This document shows, piece after piece, positions 13,403-32,627 of a stretch of DNA of 64,000 nucleotides (position 1 is the stretch's first letter; each line of letters opens with the position of its first letter). The stretch is from contig JAOUHJ010000007.1 in NCBI GenBank assembly GCA_029865225.1, positions 1 to 64,000 of the forward strand. The letters are read 5' to 3'. The notes below the pieces were generated by a model, which searched no databases, was not told the DNA's origin, and saw nothing but the letters and a program-made list of their open reading frames with translations. A program made the position numbers and the translations under genes. This DNA comes from Nitrospira sp. GTDB lineage: Bacteria; Nitrospirota; Nitrospiria; Nitrospirales; Nitrospiraceae.

Positions 13403-14395
13403 ATGGCGAAGAATCTGACGGGGGAACAGAAAGCAGCCATTCTTCTTCGCGCCATCGGTGAGGAGGCGGCTGCCCAAGTCATGAAGCAACTTGATCCGAA
13501 GGAGATCAAGAAGCTCGGAGGGTTCATGAGCGAGACCGCACAGATCTCTCGAGACGAAGAGGAGGCGGTCATTTCAGATTTTCGGGCAGCGAGTGCGAGT
13601 GGGGGAGTACAGTTTCGGGGGAAAGAGTTCATCAAGACAGTGCTAACGAAAGCGCTCGGATCGGAGAAGGCGGCGCGCATTATTGAATCGATGACGCAGA
13701 AGAGTTATCCAGGCCTAGAAGCATTGAAATGGGTGGACGTGAAAACCCTCACGCAAATGCTGAAGGTCGAACATGCCCAAACTGTCGCGGTGGTACTCGC
13801 CCATTTAGAGAGCGAACAGGCCAGCCAAGTATTGGCTGCTCTGCCGAATGATATGCGAGGGGATGTGGCGCTTCGGCTGGCGACAATGGAGGAAGTGCCG
13901 CCGGACGTCTTGGAGGAACTGAGCGAGACCTTACAGGAAACGTTGGTGGCAGGGAAAGAGATGAGTTCGCACAGCGTCGGAGGTGCGGAGGTCATCGCCA
14001 ATATTTTGATGCGGATGGACAAGACCAACGAGGGCGGCATCATGACCAGAATTTCCGAAACAAGCCAGACCCTCGCCGACAATATCCGGGCGCTCATGTT
14101 CGTGTTCGATGATCTTGTGAAGGTCGATGACCGTGGGATGCAGGAGTTGATGAAGGAGATCAGTAAGGAAGATCTTCCGGTGGCTCTGCGCGGCGCCAAT
14201 CCGGACGTGAAAGAGAAATTCTTCAAGAATATGTCCAGTCGTGCCGCAGAAATGGTGAAGGACGATATGGAGGCGCGTGGACCGGTCAAGGTTTCGGATG
14301 TCGAGAAAGCACAACAGAATATTCTTAAGGTCTGTCGAAAACTGGAGGACGAGGGCCGCATTGTGATCGCTGGGGTGGGCGAGGAGATGCTGTAG
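13403..14395 (+). CDS. fliG: Flagellar motor switch protein FliG
   Basis: A 330-residue C-ring protein that binds FliF with its N-terminal domain and meets the stator with its C-terminal domain. Seen are the N-terminal GEQKAAILLRAIGEEAAAQV, the middle-domain VEHAQTVAVVLAHLESEQAS (the family EHPQ is EHAQ here) and the C-terminal charged torque helix around MQELMKEISKEDLPVALRGA. It overlaps the start of the next gene by one base. No truncation is seen. Confidence 0.95.
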   Translation: MAKNLTGEQKAAILLRAIGEEAAAQVMKQLDPKEIKKLGGFMSETAQISRDEEEAVISDFRAASASGGVQFRGKEFIKTVLTKALGSEKAARIIESMTQKSYPGLEALKWVDVKTLTQMLKVEHAQTVAVVLAHLESEQASQVLAALPNDMRGDVALRLATMEEVPPDVLEELSETLQETLVAGKEMSSHSVGGAEVIANILMRMDKTNEGGIMTRISETSQTLADNIRALMFVFDDLVKVDDRGMQELMKEISKEDLPVALRGANPDVKEKFFKNMSSRAAEMVKDDMEARGPVKVSDVEKAQQNILKVCRKLEDEGRIVIAGVGEEML

Positions 14396-15420
14396 TGAAT
14401 GGCGCGGCGATATCGGCGGGGATATTTCGCGAACATGAACTGAGTCGACTGCAGGGGACGATTCTCATCGTCGATGATGAGGAAAGGATTCGCCATCTCT
14501 TTCTCGAACTGCTCCGGCCGGAACGGGTGCCAGTGCGGGTCGCCGGTTCCGGGCAAGAAGCGATTGCGATGGTCAAGGAGATGCCTCCAGCTCTTTTGAT
14601 TGTGGATGTCCTGCTGCCCGATCAAGATGGGATTGCGGTTCTTGAGGAAGCTCAGAAAATTGATAATCGGATCATCGGCGTGGTGATGACGGGAGCAGCG
14701 ACGGTTGAACTGGCTGTGCGTGCGATGAAGGCCGGCGCGATCGACTTTTTGATCAAGCCGTTTCAGAACGAGATCATGCTGAGTACCGTGCGTCGCTTGC
14801 TGGAACTCCATCGGTTACGTGCCGAGAACACGGTCTTGAAACATGCTGCCGTCCAGTCTGGTGCGGTGCGGCTGCAAAGTCTGCCGTTTCAGACGTTCGG
14901 AGATGATGAAACGGCGGGGGAGGATGACGGCCAGTCTGAATACGAGCGTGGCGTAGCGGATGGCCAACGACGGGTCGAAGAAGAGCGTCGGCAAGATTTG
15001 GCTGTGCTGATCGACGCAGCGAGGAAGTTTGATGTTGCTCAATCCAAACTGCAGCGGACGTTCGAGGATGAGGTGATTGCCTTGTCGATTCAGATCGTCT
15101 CCAAAATTCTGCATGAGGCGGCCGAATCGAGCCGGGAGCAAATTGTCATCCAGGTGAAAGATGCACTCGGTGCGGTGGGAAAGTCGGATACCCTGGTGAT
15201 ACAGGTGCATCCACTCGATGCAGCCGCTATCGAATCGGCACGTACGGAGCTGACCAGGCAACCAGACACTGCGCTGAAGTTGGCGATCGAACCGGTGGCT
15301 TCGCTCCCACGGGGAAGTTGTCTGGTGCATACCAGCACACGATTAGCGGACGCGTCTCTCGACACGCAGTTGCTCCGCTTGGGTGATACCTTAAGGAACC
15401 GGGCATATCGTGAGTCTTAG
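14395..15420 (+). CDS. fliH: Receiver domain-FliH fusion: export ATPase regulator
   Basis: A 341-residue protein in the FliH position between FliG and FliI. Residues about 22-125 form an apparently complete receiver domain: acidic pair Asp27/Asp28, acceptor Asp71 in LIVDVLLPDQDG, Thr99 in MTGAAT and Lys121 in LIKPF. The linker after it (RRLLELHRLRAENTVLKHA) resembles the receiver-AAA linker of the activator at 3898. From about 180 onward it is FliH/SctL-like: a charged helix, ADGQRRVEEERRQDLAVLID, then the conserved VIALSIQIVSKILHEA and the C-terminal domain that binds the FliI N-terminus. FliH normally holds FliI as an inactive heterotrimer and brings it to the export gate. The fusion suggests phosphorylation control of export, which is inference. 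The GTG start follows GAGGAG inside fliG. Confidence 0.88.
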   Translation: MNGAAISAGIFREHELSRLQGTILIVDDEERIRHLFLELLRPERVPVRVAGSGQEAIAMVKEMPPALLIVDVLLPDQDGIAVLEEAQKIDNRIIGVVMTGAATVELAVRAMKAGAIDFLIKPFQNEIMLSTVRRLLELHRLRAENTVLKHAAVQSGAVRLQSLPFQTFGDDETAGEDDGQSEYERGVADGQRRVEEERRQDLAVLIDAARKFDVAQSKLQRTFEDEVIALSIQIVSKILHEAAESSREQIVIQVKDALGAVGKSDTLVIQVHPLDAAAIESARTELTRQPDTALKLAIEPVASLPRGSCLVHTSTRLADASLDTQLLRLGDTLRNRAYRES

Positions 15421-18152: not shown

Positions 18153-18761
18153 ATGCATAAGGGTCGAGTGTCGCCCGTCCGTTCTCCGCACCTATTGCTA
18201 GGTGTGGCAGCCTGTCATGTCTTCGCCTTGGTTGTTGGGATAGGAGCCATTTCTCGCCCTGCACTAGCAGGACCACCTGTCCCGTTTAGTGCGAGTGGCA
18301 CCATTTTGACGATTGATGTGGGCGATGTTCGCTCGGCCGGGCAGAGTGGACGATTCATCGTGAGGGATCGACAGATTACCGGGACCCTTACCGGATCGAT
18401 TGGAGGAACGGCTGGTGTCCCGTTTGTCATCACCTATGATTCTAACGTGCCGCTTGCCACACAGTCTGGGCGCATTCATGCTCGGTTGATTGCGGGCGTC
18501 TATGAAGCGAATATGACGATGGCCTCCAATGCAGGACCGACACCGGTCGAGTGTGAGACTCCGGATGGTGCGACGTGCATTGCGACGGGAGCTGGAAACT
18601 TCGTTCCAGGGCTTCTATTGAACGGGCGGATGAATTTTCTCAGTGGGGCGAAAGGTCAGGGCACGGTCAATGGGTGGCTGATTCCGATCCTTGACGAACA
18701 AGGGCATATCGTCAGTATTGCAGCCAGTCTTTTGAGTCTCAGTGGCCGGTGGACTCCATGA
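18153..18761 (+). CDS. Secreted protein of unknown function
   Basis: A 202-residue protein with a signal peptide: basic start MHKGRVSPVRSPH, hydrophobic core, and a likely cut after ALA in RPALAGPPVPF. The mature part is beta-rich with a run of short strands (GTILTIDVGDV, GRFIVRDRQITGTLTGSIGG), two Cys near residues 130-140 that could pair, and a Gly-rich end. No family is recognised. It begins the non-flagellar segment after the MotE-like gene and has its own ribosome binding site, GGAAAGGGG. Confidence 0.75.
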   Translation: MHKGRVSPVRSPHLLLGVAACHVFALVVGIGAISRPALAGPPVPFSASGTILTIDVGDVRSAGQSGRFIVRDRQITGTLTGSIGGTAGVPFVITYDSNVPLATQSGRIHARLIAGVYEANMTMASNAGPTPVECETPDGATCIATGAGNFVPGLLLNGRMNFLSGAKGQGTVNGWLIPILDEQGHIVSIAASLLSLSGRWTP

Positions 18762-18764
18762 ACG

Positions 18765-18782
18765 CCAGGCATGCAGGCCTGG
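18765..18782 (+). terminator. Small hairpin after the secreted protein gene
   Basis: CCAGGC (18765-18770) pairs with GCCTGG (18777-18782) three bases after the stop codon. There is no T tract, so it is a weak candidate terminator. Confidence 0.35.
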
Positions 18783-19832
18783 AAGTTCCGCTATACCGAG
18801 ATCGGCTTCCCACAGGTAGAGACAACTTCCTCTGAATCGGCGAGCGAGTTTCTTTGAGGGGATCAGCTCGCTTCCACTTAGGGATATAACACATCCCGAT
18901 CTGTTGATGGTTCTGTCCGAAGGCCACGTGCGTCAGGCTAACGCATGTGGGGGAAAAGTCCCCAGCCACAAGAAACCGATCCACAATCCCAGCTAGTAAC
19001 TTCACCAGTCAGCCGACACCCTCCCTTTACTAAAGCATAAGGCCGTTCAGCTCTGCTGAATAGTGAACACGGCGCTCATCTGTCGCATAAATCCGCATTT
19101 GCCGACGTCGCGAGAGTCACAACTGTTCACTTCCTTCGACACAGTGCATTCTGCTCCTAGAAATCTTCCTAGGTTGAGGTATTTTGCATCATTCCAGCGA
19201 GCTCTGAGCAGGCCATCTGACGTGCCGGGATGAAGTCCTGTGATCTTCAGGGGTCATACGTAGATACGGCTACGACACGTACGCGCGTGATTCTGTGGAG
19301 AAAGGCCGTCAGCGCCCGGTGACACAGCGAAGACGCTAATAACATCATGCGCAAGTGGTAGATCTGCTGGAACAAGATTCGCAAGAGGCTGGAGTGAAAG
19401 TCGAGGAAGTCAAGTGCACGATGGAAAACGAGTGAGGACCACTGAGCTGGCGAGGGGCGGGATGTATGGTTATGTTCCGGATATGAATGAAATGGTTACT
19501 GGTTTCTCCAGCTCGCTGAAACCCAAGAAGAAGCTGTGCTCGTCAATCTTGGAGTGAGCAAACATATGGACTAACGTGAAGCCAAGGCGCCTTTTGGTTG
19601 TTTCTTGGGAAGAGCCGCAGCAACGCACCTCAAGCACTCATATGTTAACGCAAGTTCTGACCATGCCTTTCACAGTATTTTCGAGCAGGATTGGGCAGCG
19701 GTACTTTAGAGCCGAAAGGTTGGGCGACCGAGCCCCATAGGAGGGAAACGTTCCATCTATTACATTATCACCTTATTCTCACCAGAGACATGTGTTGACT
19801 TTTGATAAAGGCCCTATTCATGGGAGGCGATC
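18783..19832. other. Non-coding stretch of about 1 kb
   Basis: No gene of convincing length is present on either strand. Several short hairpins occur, including CACGTGCGT pairing with ACGCATGTG near 18922-18946 and GGGG pairing with CCCC just after it. A short open tail, LLEQDSQEAGVKVEEVKC, ends at TGA at 19432-19434 and may be the end of a lost gene. The segment also contains the first copy of a diverged 94 bp repeat. The ribosome binding site of the next gene is GGGAGGCG near 19822. Nothing else is recognised. Confidence 0.5.
19490..19583 (+). repeat. Diverged 94 bp direct repeat, copy A
   Basis: This segment aligns without gaps to 22734-22827; I count 64 identical bases of 94 by eye. Read in one frame it encodes GYWFLQLAETQEEAVLVNLG followed by VSKHMD and TAA. 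Copy B encodes a related peptide with its stop at the same offset. It is probably a coding relic, but the parent gene is unknown. Confidence 0.6.
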
Positions 19833-22556
19833 ATGGGAAGGCTCCCCGAACTGCAACTTAGGCATACTGCGCTCAGAATCGCTGAGCACCTGCTCGACCG
19901 ATACAAGCTGGGGCGGTTTCTCGAATTATACCCTCTTCCTCCAAGCGGCCTCGCTATTGTGGATTTCCAGCCCTGGCAAGGTTATGCGGGCACGCTTATG
20001 GTAATCGGTGGCAGCGGTTTTGCTGAAGAGCGTCACGGCAACTACGTGGAGGTGGGAGGCAAGCCAGCCCGAGTTATCGAAGCTGAGCCTAACCGCCTGA
20101 CTGTCATCACACATCACCAGACACGCAACGGGCCAGTCAAGGTTACCGTCGACGGGGTGACGGCTACGGGGCCGCGAGATTTCGACGTGCTACCCTGGCC
20201 TGAGCCCGATGCCGGCGATGACGGCCCACCTTACTCGTACGCTGGTGCCGGCTCGGGTGGTGCACCAGCAGCGGGCACCGTGCCTCCGACCGGAACCGCA
20301 CGCATTCTTGTTGTGGTCTGCAATCCGACAGACCTTGTTCCGCCCAACCCTGCCAACATACGGCAGGATGTGGTGGACACATTCGCAGACGTAACCACGT
20401 TCTACGACCAAGCGAGCTACGGGCAGCTTAACGTTCAGGTTGATGTCACGAACTTCGTTACGCTTCTGAACAACACTGACTACTACCACCGTGCCAACGG
20501 CGCTACTGGTTATCCAAACATTGACAGTGCCGTTCTCGACCAACTGATAGCCGAATGTGCGCAGGGCGCTGTGGATCAAGGCTTCAACCTGAATAACTAC
20601 TCGGTGATGACAGCATCAGTCTACCTGCCAGGATTCACCGTACGGGCCTGGGGCGGATGGAGCCAAAGCAACTTCGCCTACGACAACGGGGCTGGGGTTT
20701 CAATCAACATCACGACCACCAATCCGCTGGGATTGATCGCTCAGCGGCACGATGCGGACTGGGGACGCGCCGCCCATGAGTTCGGCCACAATCTGGTCGA
20801 TGGCGGACTGGCATTTGGAGAGGACGTGTACAGTAGCGATCTGATCGACCCGACCGAAGCGACGGTGCACAACTTTGAGATGATGGGCAACCATGATTCC
20901 CATCCGCTGTTTTCTGCCTTCTACATGCACCAACTCGGCTGGTACAACGCCGCGAACATCGTCGACCTGGTTTGGGACCGTAATCCGTTCTCGCAGGAAT
21001 ACGACATCGTCGCCCACGGCCTGACACAGGACGCCTTGGCAACTCGTTACCACTTGATTCGCATCAAGGTGAGTGAGGGGCTCTATTACTTCGTGGAGGT
21101 CCGCCAGCGGCCAGATCCTGCCGCTGCCACACCGCAGATCTTCGACGAGAACATCTTGTTACCGATGGGTGGTGCCCCCGACGGTGGGGTCTTGGTGACC
21201 AAGGTGATCACCGGTGAACTGAACAACAACCACCAGACCCGGCTCATCACGCTATTGCAGGAGCAGACGAGAGTGATGGTTACCGGAGAGGAAGCCGTCG
21301 ATCCGTTGCGCACGCTGAGGATCGCCGTCGTCAACGACCACGTCCAGGCGAGGCCGCGCGTTTGCCGTGTGCGTATCGAATGGGCCCAGGTGATTGGAGA
21401 TACGCCAGGTGGGGACTTCGACCTGCGCATCGAGCCATGGGGCCCAGGCTGGGAGACCACGGACATTTGGATTGACCGTAATCCGTTTGGTACCTATGAC
21501 AACACCGATGCTGCCGGTAACCCTGTCGGCAATGGGGACGCACCACGCCCCCTAGAGATCAACCGCTTCGAAGCGCGCATCCGCAACGACGGCTCGGCGG
21601 CTGCGAACAACGTTAAGGTTACGCACTACGCGGTGGAGCCGCCCGGCGTGGGCGACAACGGCAATTGGGCGCCGCTCGCCACCTATTCTGTTGCGGCAAT
21701 TCCGGCGAACGGTTCGGTTACCCGCCAGGTGAACTGGGTACCAATTGTTGGGGAACATACGTGCCTGAAAGTCGCGATCTCACCGCAACTCGGTGAGGTA
21801 ACCACCGGCAATAACTCCGCGCAGGAGAACGTCTTCACGTTCCAGCCCGCGGCGGGGTCGGTGCCCGAGCCGGTGGTGATGACTGTCGCGGTGCGCAACC
21901 CGCTCAGGGAGCGCTCGTTGGTGATGATCTCGCTGCAGGGTGTACCTTATGGCTACTACGTGTACTTCCCGCATCGCTGGTTATGGCTCGATGGCCTGGC
22001 CGAGCGCAAGCTTGACTTGCTCGTCATTCCGCTGATCGACATTCAGGAAATGAAGCGTCGCAAAGCCGATATCCGACTGTTCGGCCGCGTGCCGCGCGTC
22101 TATTCGCAGAAGCTGGACATGACGGGCTACCCAGGTTCATGGTTTGCGCCAATCGGCGGCATTTTGGCGAATGTCACGCCGAAGCACCGGTCTGATGTCA
22201 AGCTTGATGATAAGGTACGCCCGGAAAAGGAAAACGTCGTTTGGATCTTCGGCGTCGTATCGCCGCACATCAAGGCCCAGCAGCTTCGCATCGACATGAC
22301 ACGGCCAGACGGCTCGGTCGTAATCGCTCATACAAACACCGACGAAAATGGTCGCTTCAGCGTTGTATTCGAACTGGCGCAGAAAAGCAGGAAACCAAGC
22401 GCGGCTCAGCGTAAGGGCGCTATGTACGCGTTCCAAGCGCACATCATCAATGCCATGGAGCTTGCACCGGCGGATTCGAACATCGTCTGGTACAGGCTTG
22501 GTGATCGCGTCAAGGAGCAGCTAACGAGCGATGACCGCTGTGATGACGAGGGGTAG
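19833..22556 (+). CDS. M6-like zinc metalloprotease without signal peptide
   Basis: A 907-residue protein. Residues about 38-115 form an IPT/TIG-like fold (SGLAIVDFQPWQGYAGTLMV, GGKPARVIEAEPNRLTVIT). A Gly/Ala/Pro linker leads to a metalloprotease domain (about 155-400) with the zinc motif HEFGH at residues 315-319 and the M6/immune-inhibitor-A-type block FEMMGNHDSHPLFSAFYMHQ. The C-terminal half holds beta domains, one resembling a CARDB adhesion fold (FEARIRNDGSAAANNVKVTH). M6 enzymes are normally secreted, yet this start, MGRLPELQLRHTALRIAEHL, is an amphipathic helix and no signal peptide is visible. The ribosome binding site GGGAGGCG fixes the ATG. Codons end in G or C more often than in the flagellar genes, which hints at transfer. 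Confidence 0.75.
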   Translation: MGRLPELQLRHTALRIAEHLLDRYKLGRFLELYPLPPSGLAIVDFQPWQGYAGTLMVIGGSGFAEERHGNYVEVGGKPARVIEAEPNRLTVITHHQTRNGPVKVTVDGVTATGPRDFDVLPWPEPDAGDDGPPYSYAGAGSGGAPAAGTVPPTGTARILVVVCNPTDLVPPNPANIRQDVVDTFADVTTFYDQASYGQLNVQVDVTNFVTLLNNTDYYHRANGATGYPNIDSAVLDQLIAECAQGAVDQGFNLNNYSVMTASVYLPGFTVRAWGGWSQSNFAYDNGAGVSINITTTNPLGLIAQRHDADWGRAAHEFGHNLVDGGLAFGEDVYSSDLIDPTEATVHNFEMMGNHDSHPLFSAFYMHQLGWYNAANIVDLVWDRNPFSQEYDIVAHGLTQDALATRYHLIRIKVSEGLYYFVEVRQRPDPAAATPQIFDENILLPMGGAPDGGVLVTKVITGELNNNHQTRLITLLQEQTRVMVTGEEAVDPLRTLRIAVVNDHVQARPRVCRVRIEWAQVIGDTPGGDFDLRIEPWGPGWETTDIWIDRNPFGTYDNTDAAGNPVGNGDAPRPLEINRFEARIRNDGSAAANNVKVTHYAVEPPGVGDNGNWAPLATYSVAAIPANGSVTRQVNWVPIVGEHTCLKVAISPQLGEVTTGNNSAQENVFTFQPAAGSVPEPVVMTVAVRNPLRERSLVMISLQGVPYGYYVYFPHRWLWLDGLAERKLDLLVIPLIDIQEMKRRKADIRLFGRVPRVYSQKLDMTGYPGSWFAPIGGILANVTPKHRSDVKLDDKVRPEKENVVWIFGVVSPHIKAQQLRIDMTRPDGSVVIAHTNTDENGRFSVVFELAQKSRKPSAAQRKGAMYAFQAHIINAMELAPADSNIVWYRLGDRVKEQLTSDDRCDDEG

Positions 22557-23047
22557 CCCTCGGAGCGGAATTCACCGTAGTTCTTGAAGTAGTTATCTTG
22601 GATTACGCATCACGAGTGGAGCACTGGGAGTATATCTTGTTCTGTGTATGTATGGCCAAATGGACGTCGGTGATCGACTGCTGTCTGAGGCGCAATTGAA
22701 GAGGTCAGATTCTATTGTTTTGCCTCGGAGGGGAAATGGTTCTTGGTTTCTTCCGCTCGCTGAAAAGAAAGAACGGGAAACTCTTACGAATCTGGGAGCG
22801 AGTAGACACCTGTGTTAAGGCGAAGCCTAGTCATTCTCATCGCAGTAATTTCAGGGAATAAGGGGCAGAAGCTTGTCTTGCGTATTACCAGACTTTGAAG
22901 CTGCGGATCTACTGCAGATAACAGGGCTCGACTCCAGTTTGTCTTCTCCTACTTCCTGCGCATCCTGTCCTTCGCCCCCTTGGAGTAGGGAAACAGAAGA
23001 TTTTTCCGAAGCCTGCTGGTGAACCAAACTGAAAGGGAGATAGAGAT
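22557..23047. other. Intergenic stretch with a 56-codon open frame
   Basis: An open frame from ATG 22648 to TAA 22818 encodes a 56-residue peptide that ends in the repeat-copy-B sequence (GSWFLPLAEKKERETLTNLG). It has no clear ribosome binding site and is probably the tail of a lost gene. The following 200 bases hold no gene; GGGAGATAGAG at about 23035 is the ribosome binding site of the next gene. Confidence 0.4.
22734..22827 (+). repeat. Diverged 94 bp direct repeat, copy B
   Basis: Gap-free partner of 19490-19583, in the same orientation. The two copies bracket the metalloprotease gene, and each lies roughly 220-250 bases before the next start codon (19833 and 23048). Conserved codons and stop position suggest paralogous protein ends rather than a structural DNA element. 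Confidence 0.6.
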
Positions 23048-25960
23048 ATGTCGGCAAATGAAGAGTCAGCCCTGGTTCTTACCATTCAAACAGCCCTTAC
23101 CGGCAAAGGGCAAGATGCACTTGGAAATCGAAACGCACTGGCGCTGACCGAGCAATTGCTAGCCTTCGCGCGCGCTACGGTGACGGTCGCACAAGGCGCT
23201 ATCCGTGTCGAGGGTTACGAGGCCACCGGCGACCGTCTCGTTAGCTATGAACTGGAAGTTGCGACCGGCTCCTGGCGTCGGGGCCAATTTGTTGACCACA
23301 AGGCTGGCACCGTCCACGCCTTGCGCGTACCCACCCGTAAGGCCGCTCCGACCAGCTGGGTGCTGCCCCAAGAGGAAACCCAAGAACTGTGCATCTACCT
23401 GAACAACGGCACGCTGCTGCGGGCTAGCGTCCCGCTCGGCCTCAGGCTCAGTATGCTGGAGGCACGCACTTTCTGGGGCGATCTCTTCTGGTTGCAGCCC
23501 GAAGACGATGATGCGGCTTACTGGGAACAGTTGGCGAGCTTCGGTCTGCCACAGCAAGTCAGTCTGGAAGCTGGGGAGACGGGGGCAACACTTGTCGAGA
23601 TTGCCATCATCGAGGCAAAACGCGGGGCACCCGGCGTGTTGGACGTGGAAGGCTACCGCATGGTCGGCCTGACGCCACTGCATGGTGAGGCCCGCAACAA
23701 GGTGCCCGAGCCCGGTGTCTGGACCTACGCCCTCGGGGCCGGTTCCGGCGAACACATAGGCTGGATCATCGCTCCCAGCATCATAAAAGAGGTGCAGCAA
23801 CTGGCAAACGAGATCGCCAAGACTTGCGGCGAATTCGATCAGTACGATAGCCAGGGCGGCCTTATCCTTGATTGGTACGATCGCGCCGCCAAGAAGCTGG
23901 GCACGAGCAAGCTGAACGCCTTCACCCGGGTGCGGGAATTGTTAAAGTCGGCCATCGCTCTGCACATCCTTCCCAGTGCTGTCAACAAGGGTGAGATACC
24001 ACCCGAGATGGACGCTATGTACGGGCAATGGCTGAAGAACATCTTCGCTGACAAGAAAGTGGAGGCGAACCAGCGCTGGTGCACGTTCCTCAACGGCCTG
24101 GAGCAACCGCCACCGGAGTTCGGCGGCACACAACCCACGGCCGTCGATCACAAGAAATACCGGCAGAAGATCCTACTTGAGCTCGTGGACGATGTGCTCC
24201 AGGAACGGTTCGCTGGCCCCGTCGTTGACCGGCAAAAGCCCTACAATTACTCGTGCTGGGCATTTGATTTTGATGCGCGCGGCTTCAAGATGAAGCTGCA
24301 GCCTGGCAGCAACGTCCTCAAGACACTGGATGTCACGGCTCAGGGACTGCGCCTGGACGTCGCTATCGAGCGCGTCACCGTTGACTTTGAGTACGAAACA
24401 CAACCGTCGGGCAGCGTAGGTAACGTGGCTTTGTGCTTTTTTACCTTTGGCGCCGCTAACATTGTGGAAATCCAGTCCGGCAACGCGACTGTCGTCGCCA
24501 AAGATGTCCTCCTATCGCTTGAGCTGGTGCCCACCCAGGTGGGCAAGCAGATCAAGCTAGAGGCCAAGTTGGGCTCAAGCAGCCACGCTAACATCAGCTA
24601 CGGTTTCCACGGCTCCAACATCTTCACCCTGGGCATGACGGAGGTCCTTAGCGCTATCTTCACTCTGGCAAATGCATTTGAAGGAGATTTGCTCGACGAG
24701 GTTGGCGAGAGTGTGGAGGGTTTTATCGCAGATCTTGACCTGCGCTTCCCGGACTTGTTCAACTTCGAGGATGCGCCCGCTCCCGCTCTAGATACAGCAG
24801 TGGTCGTCTCCAATCCGGGGAAAGCCCAACTCATCGGGGCGCGCATTACCTTACCCGCTGACCGGGCTCCAACGCCGCTGCCTGCTCTCACGCTGCCTAC
24901 CTGTGCCGGCGACTTTGCCATAACGCTGGCCACCGACTATCTGAACGGCGTGGCCGCCTATCGCCTGTCGCAATTCAAGAAGACGGCAAAGGCGCTCCAC
25001 TTTGACTGGCGGCAACACCTGAGTGGGGAAAGTCTACCGAACGTAACTTTGCCCGGTGGTTACAACCCGCCCGCGGAAGGGGGCAAGTATCCCACCGATT
25101 ATGAAGAGACCGACGAGGAATGGACGGTTGGCACTCCTGTCTTGAAGCTGGCAAGCCCGTCGGCGCTGCCGGGCCTGAGTGATGCCGTTGGCACGATTCA
25201 CATCCCGATTACCTACCGCCTGACGCGCACTCACTACGCGTGGGGCGGGATTGTGCGCCGCCCTGAGGTAGCCCCGGAATGGTGGTGGATGGGGCTGAAA
25301 GGGCCACTGGGGCCGGAACTGGTGAGCCGGGGTGATCTCCTCATCGACCTTGATCACATAATGACCGCTCGCTATGGCATGTACCGGCAGGCAGACGGGC
25401 AGATCGTATCCCCCGTGCCTCCGGATCTGACAGGGGGCGTCGCGCCGCGTATAAATCCATCGCTAGGCTGGCATGCGGTGGATGTGGGCGGCGTCATCGT
25501 GGAATGGTATCCGTATGCCGTTTCCACGGATGAGCACATCAACGTGCAACTGGAGGCCACGCTGCCAGCACATTTGAACCTGGCGCAGTCGCTCTCCTTC
25601 CTGCCGACACTGGACCTGACCTACGGCACGCTGCAAGTGATGCTGAAGAAGGCGACATATTCCGCCAGCTTCCCTGACCTGCAGAACCCGCCCAGTCTGT
25701 TCCCCCAGCTCGTACAGACCTACCTGCAACCATTTGCCGCCCTCCATCCGTTCCAGAAGACGTTCCAGCATCCCTACGCAAACGCTTGGCTGCTATGCAA
25801 TGACGTCTACGTGTCGTTCGCATCGAATGAGACACCGGTGCTGTTCGTTTTCACAGTGGACACCATGCTCAACGCAGCCGATTCGCAGAAGCTGCATATC
25901 GAGCGTGACGGAGCCAGACTGCAAGTAACGTTTCGCTTCCTGGAGTCTCTCGTGGTTTAG
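23048..25960 (+). CDS. Large protein of unknown family
   Basis: A 970-residue protein that I do not recognise. It has no signal peptide (MSANEESALVLTIQTALTGK) and no membrane segment. The N-terminal 230 residues alternate strands with a WxxP-like pattern. Residues about 250-400 are helical (IIKEVQQLANEIAKTCGEFD, FTRVRELLKSAIALHILPSA). The rest is beta-rich, with repeated hydrophobic strands and many Trp and Pro (AWGGIVRRPEVAPEWWWMGL). No catalytic motif stands out. The gene follows the metalloprotease in the same orientation with similar codon use and its own ribosome binding site, GGGAGATAGAG. The pair may be inherited together, but a functional link is only inference. Confidence 0.7.
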   Translation: MSANEESALVLTIQTALTGKGQDALGNRNALALTEQLLAFARATVTVAQGAIRVEGYEATGDRLVSYELEVATGSWRRGQFVDHKAGTVHALRVPTRKAAPTSWVLPQEETQELCIYLNNGTLLRASVPLGLRLSMLEARTFWGDLFWLQPEDDDAAYWEQLASFGLPQQVSLEAGETGATLVEIAIIEAKRGAPGVLDVEGYRMVGLTPLHGEARNKVPEPGVWTYALGAGSGEHIGWIIAPSIIKEVQQLANEIAKTCGEFDQYDSQGGLILDWYDRAAKKLGTSKLNAFTRVRELLKSAIALHILPSAVNKGEIPPEMDAMYGQWLKNIFADKKVEANQRWCTFLNGLEQPPPEFGGTQPTAVDHKKYRQKILLELVDDVLQERFAGPVVDRQKPYNYSCWAFDFDARGFKMKLQPGSNVLKTLDVTAQGLRLDVAIERVTVDFEYETQPSGSVGNVALCFFTFGAANIVEIQSGNATVVAKDVLLSLELVPTQVGKQIKLEAKLGSSSHANISYGFHGSNIFTLGMTEVLSAIFTLANAFEGDLLDEVGESVEGFIADLDLRFPDLFNFEDAPAPALDTAVVVSNPGKAQLIGARITLPADRAPTPLPALTLPTCAGDFAITLATDYLNGVAAYRLSQFKKTAKALHFDWRQHLSGESLPNVTLPGGYNPPAEGGKYPTDYEETDEEWTVGTPVLKLASPSALPGLSDAVGTIHIPITYRLTRTHYAWGGIVRRPEVAPEWWWMGLKGPLGPELVSRGDLLIDLDHIMTARYGMYRQADGQIVSPVPPDLTGGVAPRINPSLGWHAVDVGGVIVEWYPYAVSTDEHINVQLEATLPAHLNLAQSLSFLPTLDLTYGTLQVMLKKATYSASFPDLQNPPSLFPQLVQTYLQPFAALHPFQKTFQHPYANAWLLCNDVYVSFASNETPVLFVFTVDTMLNAADSQKLHIERDGARLQVTFRFLESLVV

Positions 25961-26205
25961 ATGAAATGGGAAAACTGAATTAGGGTCACCTATGAAAATG
26001 GCTGTCTAGGGGGAGCCTGCTCAACAATTTGGGGTTTAACATGCGTATTGACTGAGAAAGTCCGGAAGTTGAGGGCGGAGAACAATTTCTTTGACAGCAG
26101 GCTGCCAGCCAACTTAAGGCTAGTTGAATGGGGAAACTAGGGGATGACCGAATGAGGTAGACCTCCCCAGAAATTGCACTCTTACCATTTATTGTTGAGG
26201 AAACC

Positions 26206-28113
26206 ATGGCCGACAAGCGGATCAAAGACATCGATTTCCAAGCACTGACCACCAGCCGCACCTATCACCCATCGCCGAGCGCTTGGGAGGATCAGGTGCT
26301 CTATTTCATGATGGTGGACCGCTTCTCGGACGGTCGAGAAAACCGGTATCGCGACAATAACAACCAGCTTGTGACGACCGGAACCACGCCAATTTTTCAA
26401 GGAACGGATAACGGCAATGCCATCAAGACCCCGAACGATGCTGCCAAATGGAGACAAGCCGGCACCACCTGGGTGGGAGGAACCCTGAAGGGGCTCGAAA
26501 GCAAGCTTGGGTATCTGAAGCGGCTTGGGGTGACCGCGATTTGGGTGAGTCCTATTTTCAAACAAGTCCGGATCCGCAACACGTATCATGGCTATGGGAC
26601 ACAGGACTTTCTCGATGTCGATCCACAGTTTGGAACGCGAGACGATCTAAAGAGCATGGTGGCTATGGCGCATCGTCTCGGCCTCTATGTGATTCTCGAC
26701 ATCATCTTGAACCATAGTGGCGACGTCTTTTCCTATGATCCGGACCGCTACTGGACTGAAGATCCGACGACCCATACGTGGTATCTAGACCCGCGTTGGG
26801 ATGGCCACCATTACCTGGTTCGAGGATACCGCGACGGTACTGGCTCTCCATCGTTACCGTTCGCTCCGGTTGATCTGGCACACCATCCGGCCGTGTGGCC
26901 GGATGGCGCCGTCTGGCCCGTTGAGCTGCAAGACTCTTCCACGTTTACGCAGAAGGGCCGGATTAGTAACTGGGACTACGACCCCGAATTCATCGAGGGC
27001 GACTTCTCTGATCTCAAGGACATCCACCTTGGTGAAGCCCCAACTGATGCGTCAGGCAAAGACAGAATTGAACGGTACCAACCATCAGCGGCTCTGAATG
27101 CGCTGTGCGATATCTATAAGTTCTGGATCGCCTTTGCTGATCTCGATGGCTTTCGAGTGGATACTGTCAAACACATGGATCTCGGCGCGATGCGTTATTT
27201 CACCGCAGTGATCCACGAGTTTACCCAGCGTTTGGGCAAGGAGAACTTTTATCTGATTGGCGAGATCACGGGGGGAAGGAAGCGAGCCTTTGAAACGCTC
27301 GAAGAGACGGGCATGGATGCCGCGCTGGGAATCGATGATATTCCAGACAAACTTGAGTATCTCGTCAAAGGGAAGCGGAATCCAAGAGAATATTTCGATC
27401 TGTTCCGGAATTCGCTCCTCGTCCAGAAGGACTCGCATGTCTGGTTTAAGAATAAGGTGGTTACGGTTTTTGACGATCACGATCAAGTCCGTAAGGGCTC
27501 GTCCAAGGCACGGTTCTGTGCCGGAGATTCTGGTGACAAGGTGGTACTCAATGTGCTCGGGCTCAATGCGCTGACGCTTGGCATTCCCTGTATTTACTAT
27601 GGCTCAGAACAAAGCTTCGATGGTGAAGGAGGCGATGATCGGTATATCCGGGAGGCGATGTTCGGAGGAGCGTTCGGCGCCTTTCGAAGCCGCGATCGCC
27701 ATTTCTTCAACGAAGAGTACACGGTGTATCGAGAACTTCAAAAGGTTCTCGCGCTTCGAGCGCAGAAACTCGCGCTCCGGCGGGGGCGACAGTATTTGCG
27801 GCAAATCTCAGACGACGGAATGCAGTTTGGGTACCCGGCTATGATCGGGTCCAACATCCATTCGATCGTCCCGTGGTCCCGCATTTTCGACAACCGCGAG
27901 ATACTCGTTGCGTTCAATACCGATCGTGACAAGCCAAGGACGGCCTGGACCATAGTGGATCGCTACCTCCATCGCAAGGGCGATCACCTCACGTGCATTT
28001 ATTCGACCGATCCGGCTCAACTCGGCGGGGAACTCACAGCGGAGACGCTCAATGATGATACGCGAGCAGTGCGGCTGACGGTCCCGGCTGCCGGATTCGT
28101 CATCTATGAATAG
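26206..28113 (+). CDS. GH13 alpha-amylase-family glycosidase, cytoplasmic
   Basis: A 635-residue GH13 enzyme. The TIM-barrel motifs are all present: region I YVILDIILNHSGDV, region II DGFRVDTVKHMD with nucleophile Asp319, region III YLIGEI with acid/base Glu353, and region IV VFDDHDQV with transition-state Asp426. It should hydrolyse or transfer alpha-glucosidic bonds in starch, glycogen or maltodextrin-like substrates. No signal peptide is seen (MADKRIKDIDFQALTTSRTY), so it should act in the cytoplasm. Region IV reads FDDHD where FVDNHD is usual. A beta-sandwich C-terminal domain closes the protein. It lies in the inserted segment and has no flagellar role that I can infer; glycogen turnover is possible. 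Confidence 0.85.
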   Translation: MADKRIKDIDFQALTTSRTYHPSPSAWEDQVLYFMMVDRFSDGRENRYRDNNNQLVTTGTTPIFQGTDNGNAIKTPNDAAKWRQAGTTWVGGTLKGLESKLGYLKRLGVTAIWVSPIFKQVRIRNTYHGYGTQDFLDVDPQFGTRDDLKSMVAMAHRLGLYVILDIILNHSGDVFSYDPDRYWTEDPTTHTWYLDPRWDGHHYLVRGYRDGTGSPSLPFAPVDLAHHPAVWPDGAVWPVELQDSSTFTQKGRISNWDYDPEFIEGDFSDLKDIHLGEAPTDASGKDRIERYQPSAALNALCDIYKFWIAFADLDGFRVDTVKHMDLGAMRYFTAVIHEFTQRLGKENFYLIGEITGGRKRAFETLEETGMDAALGIDDIPDKLEYLVKGKRNPREYFDLFRNSLLVQKDSHVWFKNKVVTVFDDHDQVRKGSSKARFCAGDSGDKVVLNVLGLNALTLGIPCIYYGSEQSFDGEGGDDRYIREAMFGGAFGAFRSRDRHFFNEEYTVYRELQKVLALRAQKLALRRGRQYLRQISDDGMQFGYPAMIGSNIHSIVPWSRIFDNREILVAFNTDRDKPRTAWTIVDRYLHRKGDHLTCIYSTDPAQLGGELTAETLNDDTRAVRLTVPAAGFVIYE

Positions 28114-28469
28114 CTGTGCCCTCGATCATCTTGTGCTGGTGACACGGAAGAGATGGGAGGGACGGAGCCGCCCCGGGCTTTGACTTTGCCATTTGATCGT
28201 CTCTGCTCCGCGGTAAATTAGGGCCTAGGCGCTGCCTGCGACTGGCAGGTATGTTGCTGTGGCTTGACCCTTCGGTCATGCGCTCCACCCACGGCTCTCG
28301 GTTCTCAGGGTAAAGCGGGGCGAAGGGGTCCGACACCCGGCACCTACGGCCTCTGGATATGTTCGTGAACAGTGCTGGCCGATGGCGCGTGCCTCTTTCC
28401 TGAACGACGAATTTGATTCCCGATCCGAGTCCAGGGACTAACCGGACGGGGTAAATAGGAGCAGGAACC
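28114..28469. other. Intergenic stretch without a gene
   Basis: No supported gene. CTGCC near 28232 pairs with GGCAG near 28244 as a short stem. A reverse frame of 130 codons covers most of the stretch, but it overlaps the start of the next gene and has no ribosome binding site. AGGAGCAGG before 28470 is the ribosome binding site of the next gene. Confidence 0.4.
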
Positions 28470-29237
28470 ATGTTCTCTGAATCACCAGACATGCCGACGG
28501 GGCAAGGGACGAAGAGCGATAGGGCAAAAGGAACACCAAGTCTCCTCCCTACTTTTACCGTCGCGCTCCTTGTGGTTCTTGCCGTACTCGGTGTGTACTG
28601 GGTGTTGTATCAGCACGAGGCGGCGATAAAGCAAAGATATTTAATGGAGCGTAATTTTCGGTATCTCGCGGGACGGGGCGAAAATCTCGGTCAGGTAATC
28701 GCTAGGTATGAAAAGATGTTTCAGTCAATCCTTCATGGGCAATCTCCCAGTAAGGAACAGGTTCTTGAATGTGACCCTGGCTTGCAACCTAAGACTGGGA
28801 CTGCTGAGAAGCCTGGAACTATGGAGAAACAGCTTGGGAAGGAGTTCTGCAAACTGTCCCATATAAAGAGGGTTATGCTCAAGAAAGAGCAAACAGATGT
28901 CCCAACCTTTCAGGCTAGTTTTATCGGAAGCGAAGTACAGCTGGATTATCGTTACGATTCCCGGGATGACAGTCAGTCATGGCTTATAACGGCACAAGTT
29001 GATCTCAAAGGGATCATGAAACCCCTACCGGTGGAGCCGATCTTCGGAGACCTCCTCTTAACCGATTCGCAAGGCAATGTGGTTCATCAACGGCGAGTCG
29101 CACATCATACCCCCGAATACCGCTTTGCGAACCTTGCTACCCTGCTCAAGGAGGCCCAGCGCAGGGCGACAAGGATCGTGAGCCCATTGTCCCGCCCATC
29201 TTCGAGCCGTTTTCCAAAGGCGACACGGAGTATTTGA
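28470..29237 (+). CDS. N-terminal part of a frameshifted membrane receptor
   Basis: A 255-codon frame with one N-terminal membrane helix (LLPTFTVALLVVLAVLGVYW), then an extracytoplasmic part (RNFRYLAGRGENLGQVIARY onward) with strand-rich sequence up to about residue 225 (FGDLLLTDSQGNVVHQRRVA). After about residue 228 the sequence turns Arg/Ser-rich and ends at 29237, while the next frame is already open and protein-like (DREPIVPPIFEPF, FSKGDTEYLIFG). A one-base deletion near 29140-29180 would join the two frames into a single protein of about 1,190 residues. As it stands the frame gives a truncated product. Start ATG follows AGGAGCAGG. Confidence 0.65.
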   Translation: MFSESPDMPTGQGTKSDRAKGTPSLLPTFTVALLVVLAVLGVYWVLYQHEAAIKQRYLMERNFRYLAGRGENLGQVIARYEKMFQSILHGQSPSKEQVLECDPGLQPKTGTAEKPGTMEKQLGKEFCKLSHIKRVMLKKEQTDVPTFQASFIGSEVQLDYRYDSRDDSQSWLITAQVDLKGIMKPLPVEPIFGDLLLTDSQGNVVHQRRVAHHTPEYRFANLATLLKEAQRRATRIVSPLSRPSSSRFPKATRSI

Positions 29238-32017
29238 TATTTGGTCAAGCCGTTCGCTGGCCGTTTGGGCAAGCAACCGCGCAGAAAGACCAAGCAGAGA
29301 AGGAATCATTCGATTTTCTGGTTGTCGGAATAGTACCCTCCCACGACTTCTACGTCCAAGCCAAGACAATTCCGACGTCTTATTTACTCGTCACCATCTC
29401 CCTGATCTTGGTGGGAGCGTTGAGTCTGCCGTATCTCAAGCTGCAATCCATGAGATCGACTGATGCACTCTCACAGGGCGACGTGTTCGCACTGCTGTAT
29501 TGCCCAGTGCTCTGGGTCGGGGCGGTCACCTTCTTAGTGGTCATCCTTGCCACTTTCCTGTCCGCGAGGACTAAGTTTGATGAAAGGCTCAAGGAGGCTG
29601 CCACTAAGATCCATGACAATTTCGTGCGTGATGTGGAGGATGCGAAGGAACAGCTCAATAAAATTGATCAGTGGTGTAAAGAAACATATGTCAAGAACGG
29701 CAAGTTAAAAGGAGCGCCACTCTGGTCGGAAGAGCTGACGATAGACCGCTATGATAACGCCCGGAATAAGTATGAGCTCAAGCTCAGAAATACTGTCGAA
29801 TCTAATGGAAAAATGTACCTGCTATTCTACGATCTGTCCAAGGTCCTGTGGGTGGACGAAAAAGGAGAGAAGCGTGTGGATTGGTCGTGGAAACGCTCAG
29901 AGAGACAACTGCGTCTTGATGACCGAGAATATGTTAAGCGGATTCGAAGCGGGGCGCAGTTTTGGGTTGAGTCGATCTATTCGTGGACCACGGGGGAGAA
30001 CTTTGCCATGGTCTCAACGAAAAGCCGTGTTTCCCAAATTGGGGGGCCATGGGTCGCTGCCTTGCAAGGGAAACTGCCTTCCGTAATGGAAACTGTCGTA
30101 CTGCCCGGTATGGGGTTCGCCGTGATCGATCAAGAGGGGAAAGTACAGTTTCATTCAGATTCTCATCGGAATCTGCGCGAGAACTTCTTTGCCGAAACCG
30201 ATCACAACGAGCAATTGCGGGCTGCTGTCTGGACGGGCAAATCGGAACCTTTCTCCGGCCAGTATTGGGGAAAAGATCGTAGGTTCTACGTGATGCCGGT
30301 CAAATGGGGAGGTTGCACGAATCCTGGCGCTAATACTGGTAAAGCGTGTCTACAGAGCGGAAAGGGAATTCAGGTGGCTAAAGATCCTCCGAAATGGTCG
30401 CTCGTGGTTTATTTGGATCAGGATGTCCTCGAGGCCCCTCTCCTTGAGGCGGGGTTTTTTGCCGTGACGCTGTTCGTACTTTATGCCTTGCTGATTCTCG
30501 GCGTTGGGTTCTTCTGGTTGCTTATCAATCGGTTGCTTAAGGGGGAACACAGGGGCCTAATTTGGCCTGACCCTAAGCAGTCTCGCACGTATGCGTTGGT
30601 CTTCATTCTAAACGTCGTTCTCCTGGTGCTGTACGGGGCCACAACGTTCTACTTAGTGCCCATGTTAGGAGTCTCGGATCCAGTGCTTCTTATAACTTTG
30701 TCCGGAATCTTTCTCCTTCCAGTCGTCCAGATCGTTATGATCTACTATCTAGCTAGGCCCACGAAGTTTAGTATGTGGTTCCCCAAGCGTCTCGTTCCAA
30801 ACCATCGCTCTGGCTATCTCCTGATGTTGGTGAGCTCTCTCCTCCTGTTTGCCATGTTGCCCGCGTTCCACTTTTTCACGATGGCCTATAATGAGGAGGT
30901 GAGATTGTACGCGGAATTCTCACAGTATGACCATGAGAAGGACTTGGAGGAGGGAAGGCAACGACTGAGGGACTTTTACTCGCAAAAGGGAGAATCCAAA
31001 TCAAAGGAGCCCACCGACGTAGAAGAGAATGGTTTCGTCGACAAGCTCTTAGAACACCGGGACAGCAAACTTGAGGGGCTCCCTGTTACCACCTTTCTGT
31101 TCTCTCCCGCACAGCAACCCATACTGTCCAACTTTTTACCCGTGTATGCCACCGTTCGACGCCTGTTCAGTTTTCAGTTTGGAACCGAAACAGGGAGATT
31201 CTTAGAGAAAAGGACTGACCCAAAGGATTTGAAGAATCCAGAAAACTTGCCTCCCGCTGTCCCATACGACCTCTACCTCTATGAGGGCTTGATAGTTTTG
31301 GGACTACTCCCCTGCGTACGCTGGTGGAAGTTAGTCCGCCGGCCCGATCTGAATTCGGACAGTCAAGAAGCAACTGTTCCTAAGGACATATCAATCCGCC
31401 TATTCGTATTAGTGGGGCTATCAATCTGTCTATCCGTAGTACTCATATGGCCTGCAATAGGATTTCTACTCATGAGCGCTCTCATATTCGCATGTGTTTC
31501 CTACGGCCTCCCGAGTATGGTTGCTGGGCAAGTATTCTTTCTCTGGGAGCCGCGTCAAGATAGAGTCTCGCCAGGCGATGTCCAAGGCCAGTGGGGCGAA
31601 TGCTCGCGGAGTGAGAAATTGGTGTTGCATCACCTTGCAGATGACCGTTTTTTGACAGGGAAAAGCGAGGGGCTAGTAGGCTTGGAGAGTAAAGGGCTCG
31701 TCCGACTTAAGCCCAACCCGCAACTGGTCAAGGACGGCAAGGATGATCGTGCCTTCATCAAGGAAATGTTTAAGAAAGAGACGAGTCTGCTGCAGAGCCT
31801 CGAAGAGGAAGAGCCCGTAAAGTTAGGGGAGCAAGCCATCTGGGCAATGAAAGTCGGGCTCCTCGGTCTGGCCGGCTTCATCCTCTATACTCAAGAGGAG
31901 TTCCGGCCAGCCGTCTTAGCAGCCTTGGCTCCCGCGTTGCCAACGCTGTTGAGATTACCTCTCGGACTAGATCCATCCAAGCTTCTGGAGATACTGACCC
32001 TGAGGAAGAAAGGGTAG
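29234..32017 (+). CDS. C-terminal part of the same receptor: Cache-like domain and membrane helices
   Basis: A 927-codon frame whose true upstream sequence seems to lie in the preceding gene; the apparent TTG start at 29234 has no ribosome binding site. A membrane helix (SYLLVTISLILVGALSLPYL) and a second one lead to a periplasmic domain of Cache type (VVLPGMGFAVIDQEGKVQFH, then YWGKDRRFYVMPVKWGG). Several more helices follow (FFAVTLFVLYALLILGVGFF; LVFILNVVLLVLYGATTFYL; YLLMLVSSLLLFAMLPAFHF). The C-terminal region has further helices and a charged cytoplasmic part. No kinase, cyclase or methyl-accepting domain is seen, so the output is unknown. GC content is lower than in the neighbours. It may be a nonfunctional remnant or a restartable fragment. 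Confidence 0.6.
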   Translation: MIFGQAVRWPFGQATAQKDQAEKESFDFLVVGIVPSHDFYVQAKTIPTSYLLVTISLILVGALSLPYLKLQSMRSTDALSQGDVFALLYCPVLWVGAVTFLVVILATFLSARTKFDERLKEAATKIHDNFVRDVEDAKEQLNKIDQWCKETYVKNGKLKGAPLWSEELTIDRYDNARNKYELKLRNTVESNGKMYLLFYDLSKVLWVDEKGEKRVDWSWKRSERQLRLDDREYVKRIRSGAQFWVESIYSWTTGENFAMVSTKSRVSQIGGPWVAALQGKLPSVMETVVLPGMGFAVIDQEGKVQFHSDSHRNLRENFFAETDHNEQLRAAVWTGKSEPFSGQYWGKDRRFYVMPVKWGGCTNPGANTGKACLQSGKGIQVAKDPPKWSLVVYLDQDVLEAPLLEAGFFAVTLFVLYALLILGVGFFWLLINRLLKGEHRGLIWPDPKQSRTYALVFILNVVLLVLYGATTFYLVPMLGVSDPVLLITLSGIFLLPVVQIVMIYYLARPTKFSMWFPKRLVPNHRSGYLLMLVSSLLLFAMLPAFHFFTMAYNEEVRLYAEFSQYDHEKDLEEGRQRLRDFYSQKGESKSKEPTDVEENGFVDKLLEHRDSKLEGLPVTTFLFSPAQQPILSNFLPVYATVRRLFSFQFGTETGRFLEKRTDPKDLKNPENLPPAVPYDLYLYEGLIVLGLLPCVRWWKLVRRPDLNSDSQEATVPKDISIRLFVLVGLSICLSVVLIWPAIGFLLMSALIFACVSYGLPSMVAGQVFFLWEPRQDRVSPGDVQGQWGECSRSEKLVLHHLADDRFLTGKSEGLVGLESKGLVRLKPNPQLVKDGKDDRAFIKEMFKKETSLLQSLEEEEPVKLGEQAIWAMKVGLLGLAGFILYTQEEFRPAVLAALAPALPTLLRLPLGLDPSKLLEILTLRKKG

Positions 32018-32234
32018 GATGAGGATGCAATGTTCTTCACCGCCCTCTCGTAGTGAGTCTGACCAAGGCCTTCTGCGATAGTCGCGATGCTTCGTTCAAT
32101 AGACGTGTTGATGGCGCTTCATCGCAGTGGACTATGGCTTGTAGGCGTTCCAAAGGTCTTCGTGACTGCCATCAGGATGTCCTTCTATATGTGGAACTCT
32201 TGACCGGGTTGCATCCAAGGATTACAGTGATCCC

Positions 32235-32627
32235 ATGTTGCGAACTGTGGTAGCAGCCATCTTCTTGATGTGCATGGTCGCTCCGGTGTGGGCGAGTGAG
32301 CCGGAATCATTCGACCCTGATCAACCCTTCGAGCAGGCGCTGAATATGAATCTCTTGCGTTCGCTGTTCGATCAAGCGCTTGATCGGCTGGAAGATCATG
32401 TGGAAATTTCCGGCAATCTCAACCCCAATGAAGCGAATGGTGATGAGGGGAAGCATCTGCGGTTCAAGTTCTATCCAGAAGGGAAGTCAAAGTCCGACGA
32501 GCATTTCGCCGCCGAAGGTTGGTTCCACTCTTCTCCCGAATCCGGCCAGCACGATTGGCATTTCAAGTTCAAACGGCCGGAGGATCGCCGACAGAAATCG
32601 CCTCCGCAGTTGAAAGCACCTCTGTAG
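32235..32627 (+). CDS. Small exported protein of unknown function
   Basis: A 130-residue protein with a clear signal peptide, MLRTVVAAIFLMCMVAPVWA, cut before SEPESFDPD. The mature part is acidic and charged, with a helix (ALNMNLLRSLFDQALDRLED) and several Lys/Phe-rich strands (HLRFKFYPEGKSK, HDWHFKFKRPED). The spacing of aromatic and basic residues suggests a beta structure. No family is recognised and the ribosome binding site is weak. It ends 190 bases before fliK, in the same direction, and may belong to the inserted segment or to the hook operon. Confidence 0.6.
   Translation: MLRTVVAAIFLMCMVAPVWASEPESFDPDQPFEQALNMNLLRSLFDQALDRLEDHVEISGNLNPNEANGDEGKHLRFKFYPEGKSKSDEHFAAEGWFHSSPESGQHDWHFKFKRPEDRRQKSPPQLKAPL

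What the first reader, a model, noticed from the sequence alone, without database searches (positions are those of the whole stretch)
19833..28113. Metalloprotease, giant unknown protein and GH13 enzyme, all without signal peptides
An M6-like protease with TIG and CARDB-like domains is normally extracellular, yet none of the three proteins has a visible export signal. They may leave by another route, act inside the cell, be released by lysis, or have lost their leaders. The 970-residue protein belongs to no family I can name.
Basis: partly seen in the sequence, partly recalled or inferred. Interest (0 to 1): 0.6.

Follow-up and report, generated by a model that had tools for sequence, protein, structure and literature searches.

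The report
Leaderless protease, orphan, amylase island
Three neighbouring genes sit in foreign DNA inserted among this bacterium's flagellar genes; the protease belongs to a branch found in many phyla that has no export signal, the amylase-type enzyme is probably an ordinary internal enzyme, and the giant protein has no relative that could be found.

Summary
Observation confirmed: the three genes are there, with good ribosome sites, and in-frame stops 5-15 codons upstream exclude hidden leaders. Their joint meaning is not supported. The 907-aa protein is an M6-type metallopeptidase by predicted fold (InhA2, Z 16), with N-terminal TIG, intact HExxH and CARDB/Ig-like domains. It belongs to a well supported branch of TIG-headed homologs from Bacteria and Archaea of at least seven phyla. 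All 11 branch members with a readable N-terminus lack a signal peptide, while more distant relatives have one. Leaderlessness is thus an old trait of the branch, not a local loss. The GH13 enzyme is leaderless in all homologs seen and looks cytosolic. The 970-aa protein is a true orphan (no family; no relative in about 500 genomes, 22 protease carriers among them), so the pair does not recur. All three are cargo of a 13.4-kb insertion between flagellar-cluster genes that are 0.15-1 kb apart in relatives. The genome has no eCIS marker. Best reading: a cytoplasmic or lysis-released leaderless protease, working like protealysin (a protealysin-emfourin pair lies near one homolog), beside unrelated passengers. 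Substrate and route out are not shown.

The parts
18765..32190 (.). Approximate extent of the DNA inserted between the flagellar-cluster genes aa202 (18153-18761) and aa130 (32235-32627); carries protease, orphan, GH13, aa255 and aa927
   Evidence: In G032 the two flanking genes are about 150 bp apart, in G024 about 1 kb; none of the five genes is found there
19822..19827 (+). GGGAGG ribosome site, 5 nt before the protease start codon
   Evidence: sequence
19833..22556 (+). Leaderless TIG-M6-CARDB metalloprotease, 907 aa
19941..20198 (+). IPT/TIG domain (residues 37-122)
   Evidence: Pfam; structure match 4hw6, Z 15.3, 1.7 A over 85 residues
20289..21389 (+). M6-type peptidase core (residues 153-519)
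   Evidence: Match to the immune inhibitor A2 zymogen 4yu5, Z 16.4, 3.9 A over 311 residues
20775..20789 (+). HEFGH zinc motif (H315, E316, H319); D331 and Y333 downstream are also invariant in A3
21393..21848 (+). CARDB domain (residues 521-672)
   Evidence: Pfam; 3idu Z 11.0, 3.4 A over 108 residues
22182..22499 (+). C-terminal Ig-like domain (residues about 784-889)
   Evidence: predicted strands and middling structure matches, Z about 9
23048..25960 (+). Orphan 970-aa protein, leaderless, no known family
26206..28113 (+). Leaderless GH13 (alpha-amylase family) enzyme, 635 aa
   Evidence: Pfam E 9e-42; homologs at 64% and 55% in the order, also leaderless
19489..19586 (+). Copy 1 of a 100-bp repeat upstream of the protease, probably the decayed 3' end of a gene
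   Evidence: 70% identical to copy 2
22733..22830 (+). Copy 2 of the same repeat, upstream of the orphan
28470..29237 (+). aa255: protein with one N-terminal membrane helix, passenger of the insertion
29234..32017 (+). aa927: hydrophobic, probably multi-pass membrane protein of no known family, passenger of the insertion

Best explanation
The three genes are passengers of a 13.4-kb insertion in a flagellar gene cluster (shown by synteny). The protease is a zinc metallopeptidase of the M6 fold (by model and motif) from an old, TIG-headed branch whose members carry no Sec signal (shown by homologs) and which has spread as a single gene between distant phyla (strongly suggested). Most likely it is made and held in the cytoplasm and acts there, or on outside proteins and neighbours after lysis or in vesicles, much as the leaderless M4 protease protealysin does; TIG, CARDB and Ig-like domains would bind substrate or cell surfaces (inferred). 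The GH13 enzyme is an ordinary cytosolic enzyme of glycogen or maltodextrin metabolism (inferred). The 970-aa protein is an orphan acquired in the same insertion, perhaps with the protease, since the two share the highest GC3 (0.70 and 0.71) of the genes compared; its role cannot be read from sequence.
For: No hidden leader is possible. Fold match to immune inhibitor A2 with Z 16.4; HExxH intact in all 22 homologs compared. Tree: 12 TIG-branch proteins form one branch with support 98/97; all 11 with a readable N-terminus are leaderless, over at least seven phyla plus an Ensifer plasmid; seven Sec-type relatives form the opposite branch, 100/100. Nucleotide similarity between window and the two closest homologs stops at the gene's ends, so it moved without neighbours. 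Insertion shown by synteny with relatives. eCIS marker absent. One homolog (L029) lies about 1.1 kb beyond a protealysin-like M4 gene with its propeptide and emfourin, and about 2.3 kb beyond a C1 peptidase; a second locus (L035) has the same C1 peptidase, 72% identical, 8.7 kb away. Protealysin is intracellular, not secreted into the medium, cleaves FtsZ and RecA, and is held in check by emfourin (PMC9505478). GH13 homologs all leaderless with the usual catalytic motifs. GC3 values.
Against: TIG, CARDB and Ig-like modules are usually on exported proteins, and the protease's amino-acid make-up is compatible with either place. No substrate, activity or location is known for any member. The protealysin parallel rests on one locus and on analogy; this genome has no papain-like C1 gene, no inhibitor gene is seen next to the protease here, and other protease genes were not sought. 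A haloarchaeal leaderless relative (L040) falls outside the main branch, with weak support.
Confidence: 0.55

Rival explanations
1. The protease leaves the cell by a dedicated leader-independent route (contractile injection, type I, type VI, the flagellar export gate beside which it now lies, or an undescribed one) and acts outside or in other cells.
For: The modules are typical of outside proteins; three of eleven N-terminal extensions are strongly amphipathic helices (L032, L033, L038) and the model shows two short N-terminal helices; 4 of 22 carrier genomes hold an eCIS marker.
Against: No eCIS marker in this genome; carriers include Actinobacteria and Archaea, so no one machine among the known ones fits the whole branch; the N-terminal extensions are not alike and one homolog starts two residues before the TIG domain; the window protein's own extension is not more amphipathic than shuffles; homologs elsewhere are not next to recognised flagellar genes.
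Confidence: 0.15
2. The proteins are released by cell lysis and do their work only outside, as shared goods or weapons.
For: Explains outside-type modules without a leader, in Gram-positive, Gram-negative and archaeal carriers alike; vesicle delivery is reported for grimelysin, a relative of protealysin (cited in PMC9505478).
Against: No lysis gene or prophage gene was recognised among the genes of the insertion; no viral relative of the protease was found.
Confidence: 0.21
3. Protease, 970-aa protein and GH13 enzyme form one functional system.
For: Same strand, adjacent, one insertion; protease and orphan share high GC3 and a repeated remnant upstream.
Against: Spacers of 491 and 245 bp; no recurrence of the orphan with the protease in 22 carriers; GH13 homologs lie elsewhere; no GH13 relative in the flanks of the protease homologs.
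Confidence: 0.07
4. The leaders were lost locally or the start codons are misread.
For: A distant Nitrospira relative (L003, also held as L039) has a lipoprotein-like leader.
Against: In-frame stops close upstream; the whole TIG-headed branch is leaderless.
Confidence: 0.02

Closest known systems
Immune inhibitor A2 (M6 peptidase, PDB 4yu5/4yu6)
   Same: Peptidase core fold over 311 residues (Z 16.4) and the HExxH motif
   Different: InhA-type enzymes are exported (established knowledge); here TIG-headed and leaderless, 18% identity over the aligned core, an inserted loop between HExxH and the invariant aspartate, CARDB and Ig-like C-terminus
Protealysin (M4, leaderless, with emfourin inhibitor)
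   Same: Leaderless metalloprotease of a family otherwise largely exported; a relative lies about 1.1 kb from one homolog (L029)
   Different: M4 not M6; has a propeptide and an inhibitor partner, neither of which was recognised beside the window's protease
IPT/TIG domain-containing protein of Ensifer adhaerens plasmid p1 (WP_223730995.1)
   Same: Same architecture and leaderless, 31% identity
   Different: Has a long insert with propeller-like repeats (judged by eye) before the peptidase core
GH13 alpha-amylase family
   Same: Catalytic domain and the usual Asp/Glu/Asp motifs
   Different: Divergent from PDB members; scores far below every NCBIfam equivalog cut-off; leaderless family about 630 aa long

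Membership tests
M6 metallopeptidase | HExxH zinc motif | tested here: met
   HEFGH at residues 315-319; intact in all 22 homologs
M6 metallopeptidase | M6 peptidase fold | tested here: met
   4yu5 Z 16.4, 3.9 A over 311 residues, on a model of mean pLDDT 68
M6 metallopeptidase | Profile score over the curated cut-off | tested here: not met
   TIGR03296 35.7 bits against 110.8; PF05547 13.0 against 22; so 'M6-type by fold', not a curated member
M6 metallopeptidase | Proteolytic activity | not testable with these tools
   needs an assay
Protealysin-like leaderless proteases (as analogy) | M4 fold with PLN propeptide | tested here: not met
   window protein matches M6, not M4; no PLN propeptide hit
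Protealysin-like leaderless proteases (as analogy) | No signal peptide | tested here: met
eCIS effector | Genome encodes an eCIS particle | tested here: not met
   PF14065 absent in G000 (completeness 99.98) although present in 13 of 59 relatives
GH13 | Catalytic domain with Asp nucleophile, Glu acid/base, Asp stabiliser | tested here: met
   PF00128 E 9e-42; DGFRVD, GEITGG and FDDHD motifs in the window protein and its homologs
TULIP / P47-like (for the 970-aa protein) | Sequence match to known TULIP families | tested here: inconclusive
   no Pfam hit at E up to 10, whole or in pieces; model unusable, pLDDT 32

The most novel reading that the evidence does not exclude
The TIG-headed, leaderless M6-type proteases are a widely traded class of cytoplasmically made effector proteases, kin in life style to protealysin-emfourin and to leaderless papain-like peptidases with which they sometimes share an island, and the 970-aa orphan is a partner of unseen fold.
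Probability: 0.2. Interest if true: 0.6.

Novelty: new variant of a known kind. Interest (0 to 1): 0.38.

Why it matters
Many enzymes are filed as secreted because of their domains. A branch that carries such domains, keeps its zinc site over at least seven phyla and lacks an export signal in every member that could be read shows that this inference can fail, and gives a defined set of proteins on which to ask how, and whether, leaderless bacterial proteases leave the cell.

Tried and rejected
Hidden upstream starts: excluded by stops. eCIS cargo: no eCIS marker in this genome. Flagellar export because of the location: not favoured, as homologs elsewhere are not beside recognised flagellar genes and occur in archaea. 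A common amphipathic N-terminal helix as export signal: significant against shuffles in only 3 of 11, not in the window protein. Viral origin: no relatives of protease or orphan in viral contigs, none of the orphan in phage records or plasmids. TULIP/P47-like fold for the orphan, suggested by eye: no sequence support and the single-sequence model is useless (pLDDT 32), so no fold search was made with it. Recurrence of the trio: none. Papain-like C1 companion in this genome: absent. Papers on TIG-headed leaderless metalloproteases: none found. A first own-genome search with PF05547 rang nowhere, controls included, and says nothing.

Full report
Check of the observation. The three genes are present as described. 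For each, the nearest in-frame stop upstream lies 6 to 16 codons before the annotated start, with no alternative start in between, and a ribosome site precedes it. None has a strongly hydrophobic N-terminal segment.

Genome and setting. The window is contig C164 of a 4.12-Mb, 99.98% complete genome; by its kin it is a Nitrospira-like bacterium (a homolog first found in same-genus genome G013 is the same sequence as one on a named Nitrospira record; inference). Upstream lie fliF, fliG, a fused receiver-FliH, fliI and, by position and weak or no profile match, fliJ and a MotE-like gene; downstream fliK, flgD, flgE, fliL, fliM and fliP. In relatives the genes here called aa202 and aa130 are close neighbours: about 150 bp apart in G032, and about 1 kb in G024, where two short frames reading like a VapBC pair lie between. 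In the window 13.4 kb separate them. G012 and G018 have quite different DNA upstream of aa130. The protease, orphan, GH13 and two membrane-protein genes are thus insertion cargo. No integrase, transposase or tRNA was recognised in it. GC3 is 0.70 and 0.71 for protease and orphan, 0.63 for GH13, 0.53 and 0.59 for the two membrane-protein genes, against 0.59-0.66 for the other genes compared except aa202 (0.53), so the insertion may have been built in steps.

The protease. Profile scores for M6 are under the curated cut-offs, but a model built on ten homologs (pLDDT 68) matches the immune inhibitor A2 zymogen over residues 153-519 (Z 16.4, 3.9 A over 311 residues, 18% identity), TIG over 37-122 (Z 15) and CARDB over 521-672 (Z 11) (the Foldseek list agrees). 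HExxH is intact in all 22 homologs compared, and D331 and Y333 are invariant in the leaderless set. Homologs were found by one scan of 84,980 species genomes and in plasmids. A maximum-likelihood tree of 22 sequences places 12 TIG-branch proteins on one branch (98/97) and seven Sec-type relatives on another (100/100); the label needs two changes on the tree, the exception being the haloarchaeal L040, leaderless but outside the branch, whose long branch makes its place unsure. The leaderless branch holds records labelled Sigynarchaeota, Methylomirabilota, Planctomycetota, Methanoregula, Actinomycetota, Chitinophaga, Rokubacteria and Ensifer. The N-terminus of the Nocardioides member is not readable because of masked bases. 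Signal peptides of the exported relatives and their absence in the branch were judged from sequence and hydropathy, not by a dedicated predictor. Several records are metagenome bins whose labels may be wrong, but Ensifer (complete plasmid), Herbiconiux and Nocardioides are named strains. DNA similarity between the window and the two closest relatives (81-85% protein identity at best segment) begins 9 bp before the start codon in L029 and ends within the gene's last codons, with no shared flanks. The closest one (L029) carries a stop codon in frame after codon 631 and may be a broken copy.

Company of the homologs. L029 has, upstream of the M6-type gene, a leaderless papain-like C1 peptidase, a protealysin-like M4 peptidase with its propeptide, and emfourin. 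L035 has the same C1 peptidase, 72% identical, 8.7 kb away. Protealysin is an intracellular protease that is not secreted into the medium, cleaves FtsZ and RecA, and is inhibited by emfourin (PMC9505478). This is the best available model for how an outside-type protease without a leader can function, but it is an analogy. Apart from this C1 pair, the portion of the cross-locus comparison that was printed showed no recurring neighbour gene that was followed up, and that printout was cut.

The GH13 enzyme. Homologs at 64% and 55% identity in the same order, and more distant ones in the genus and on Nostoc plasmids, start without leaders and lie among unrelated genes. The catalytic motifs are present. 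A cytosolic role in glycogen or maltodextrin use is the plain reading (inference).

The 970-aa protein. No family, no solved relative, no relative in 59 relatives, 395 genomes of the phylum, 95 of the phylum of the closest carrier, 22 protease carriers, plasmids, phages, viral contigs or a motif scan of genome contigs. The motif scans find only close relatives. The lone-sequence model is not usable. A likeness to tubular lipid-binding proteins was a guess by eye without support.

Routes out. An eCIS marker is absent from this genome although 13 of 59 relatives have it. Type I, type VI and other systems were not searched; for the branch as a whole no single known machine fits carriers as different as Actinobacteria and archaea (established knowledge and inference). 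N-terminal extensions vary from 2 to about 56 residues and only three are significantly amphipathic.

Verdict. The finding is real but ordinary in part. The new piece is the leaderless TIG-headed M6-type branch. The orphan remains unexplained.

Noticed in passing
window 14395-15420: FliH-type gene with a receiver (CheY-like) domain fused at its N-terminus (PF00072 and PF02108); the fusion aligns over nearly its whole length in G006 and G032.
   Followed up: partly
window 28470-32017: aa255 and aa927 overlap by 4 bp; both are of no known family. They may be one membrane sensor gene split by a frame change, or a translationally coupled pair.
   Followed up: no
window 19489-19586 and 22733-22830: 100-bp repeat, 70% identical, found nowhere else in the genome; its reading frames end alike (NG-WFL-LAE...NLG-S-H, then stop), so it looks like the decayed 3' ends of two related genes, one upstream of the protease and one upstream of the orphan.
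   Followed up: partly
L029 4221-10211: Island of leaderless-type peptidases on a Methylomirabilis MAG contig: papain-like C1, protealysin-like M4 with emfourin, then the TIG-M6 gene, which has a stop codon in frame after codon 631.
   Followed up: partly
L072 (G024) between aa202 and aa130: Two short frames that read like a VapBC toxin-antitoxin pair lie at the place of the window's insertion, so the site takes different cargo in different species.
   Followed up: no
L067 240-1976 (G018): 578-aa protein without an evident leader beginning MVTTNKLDF, in the other DNA found upstream of aa130 in that species; no convincing Pfam family.
   Followed up: no
L028: A contig labelled Sigynarchaeota carries an 81% identical protease; such close likeness to a Nitrospira-like gene may mean recent transfer or a mis-binned contig.
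   Followed up: no
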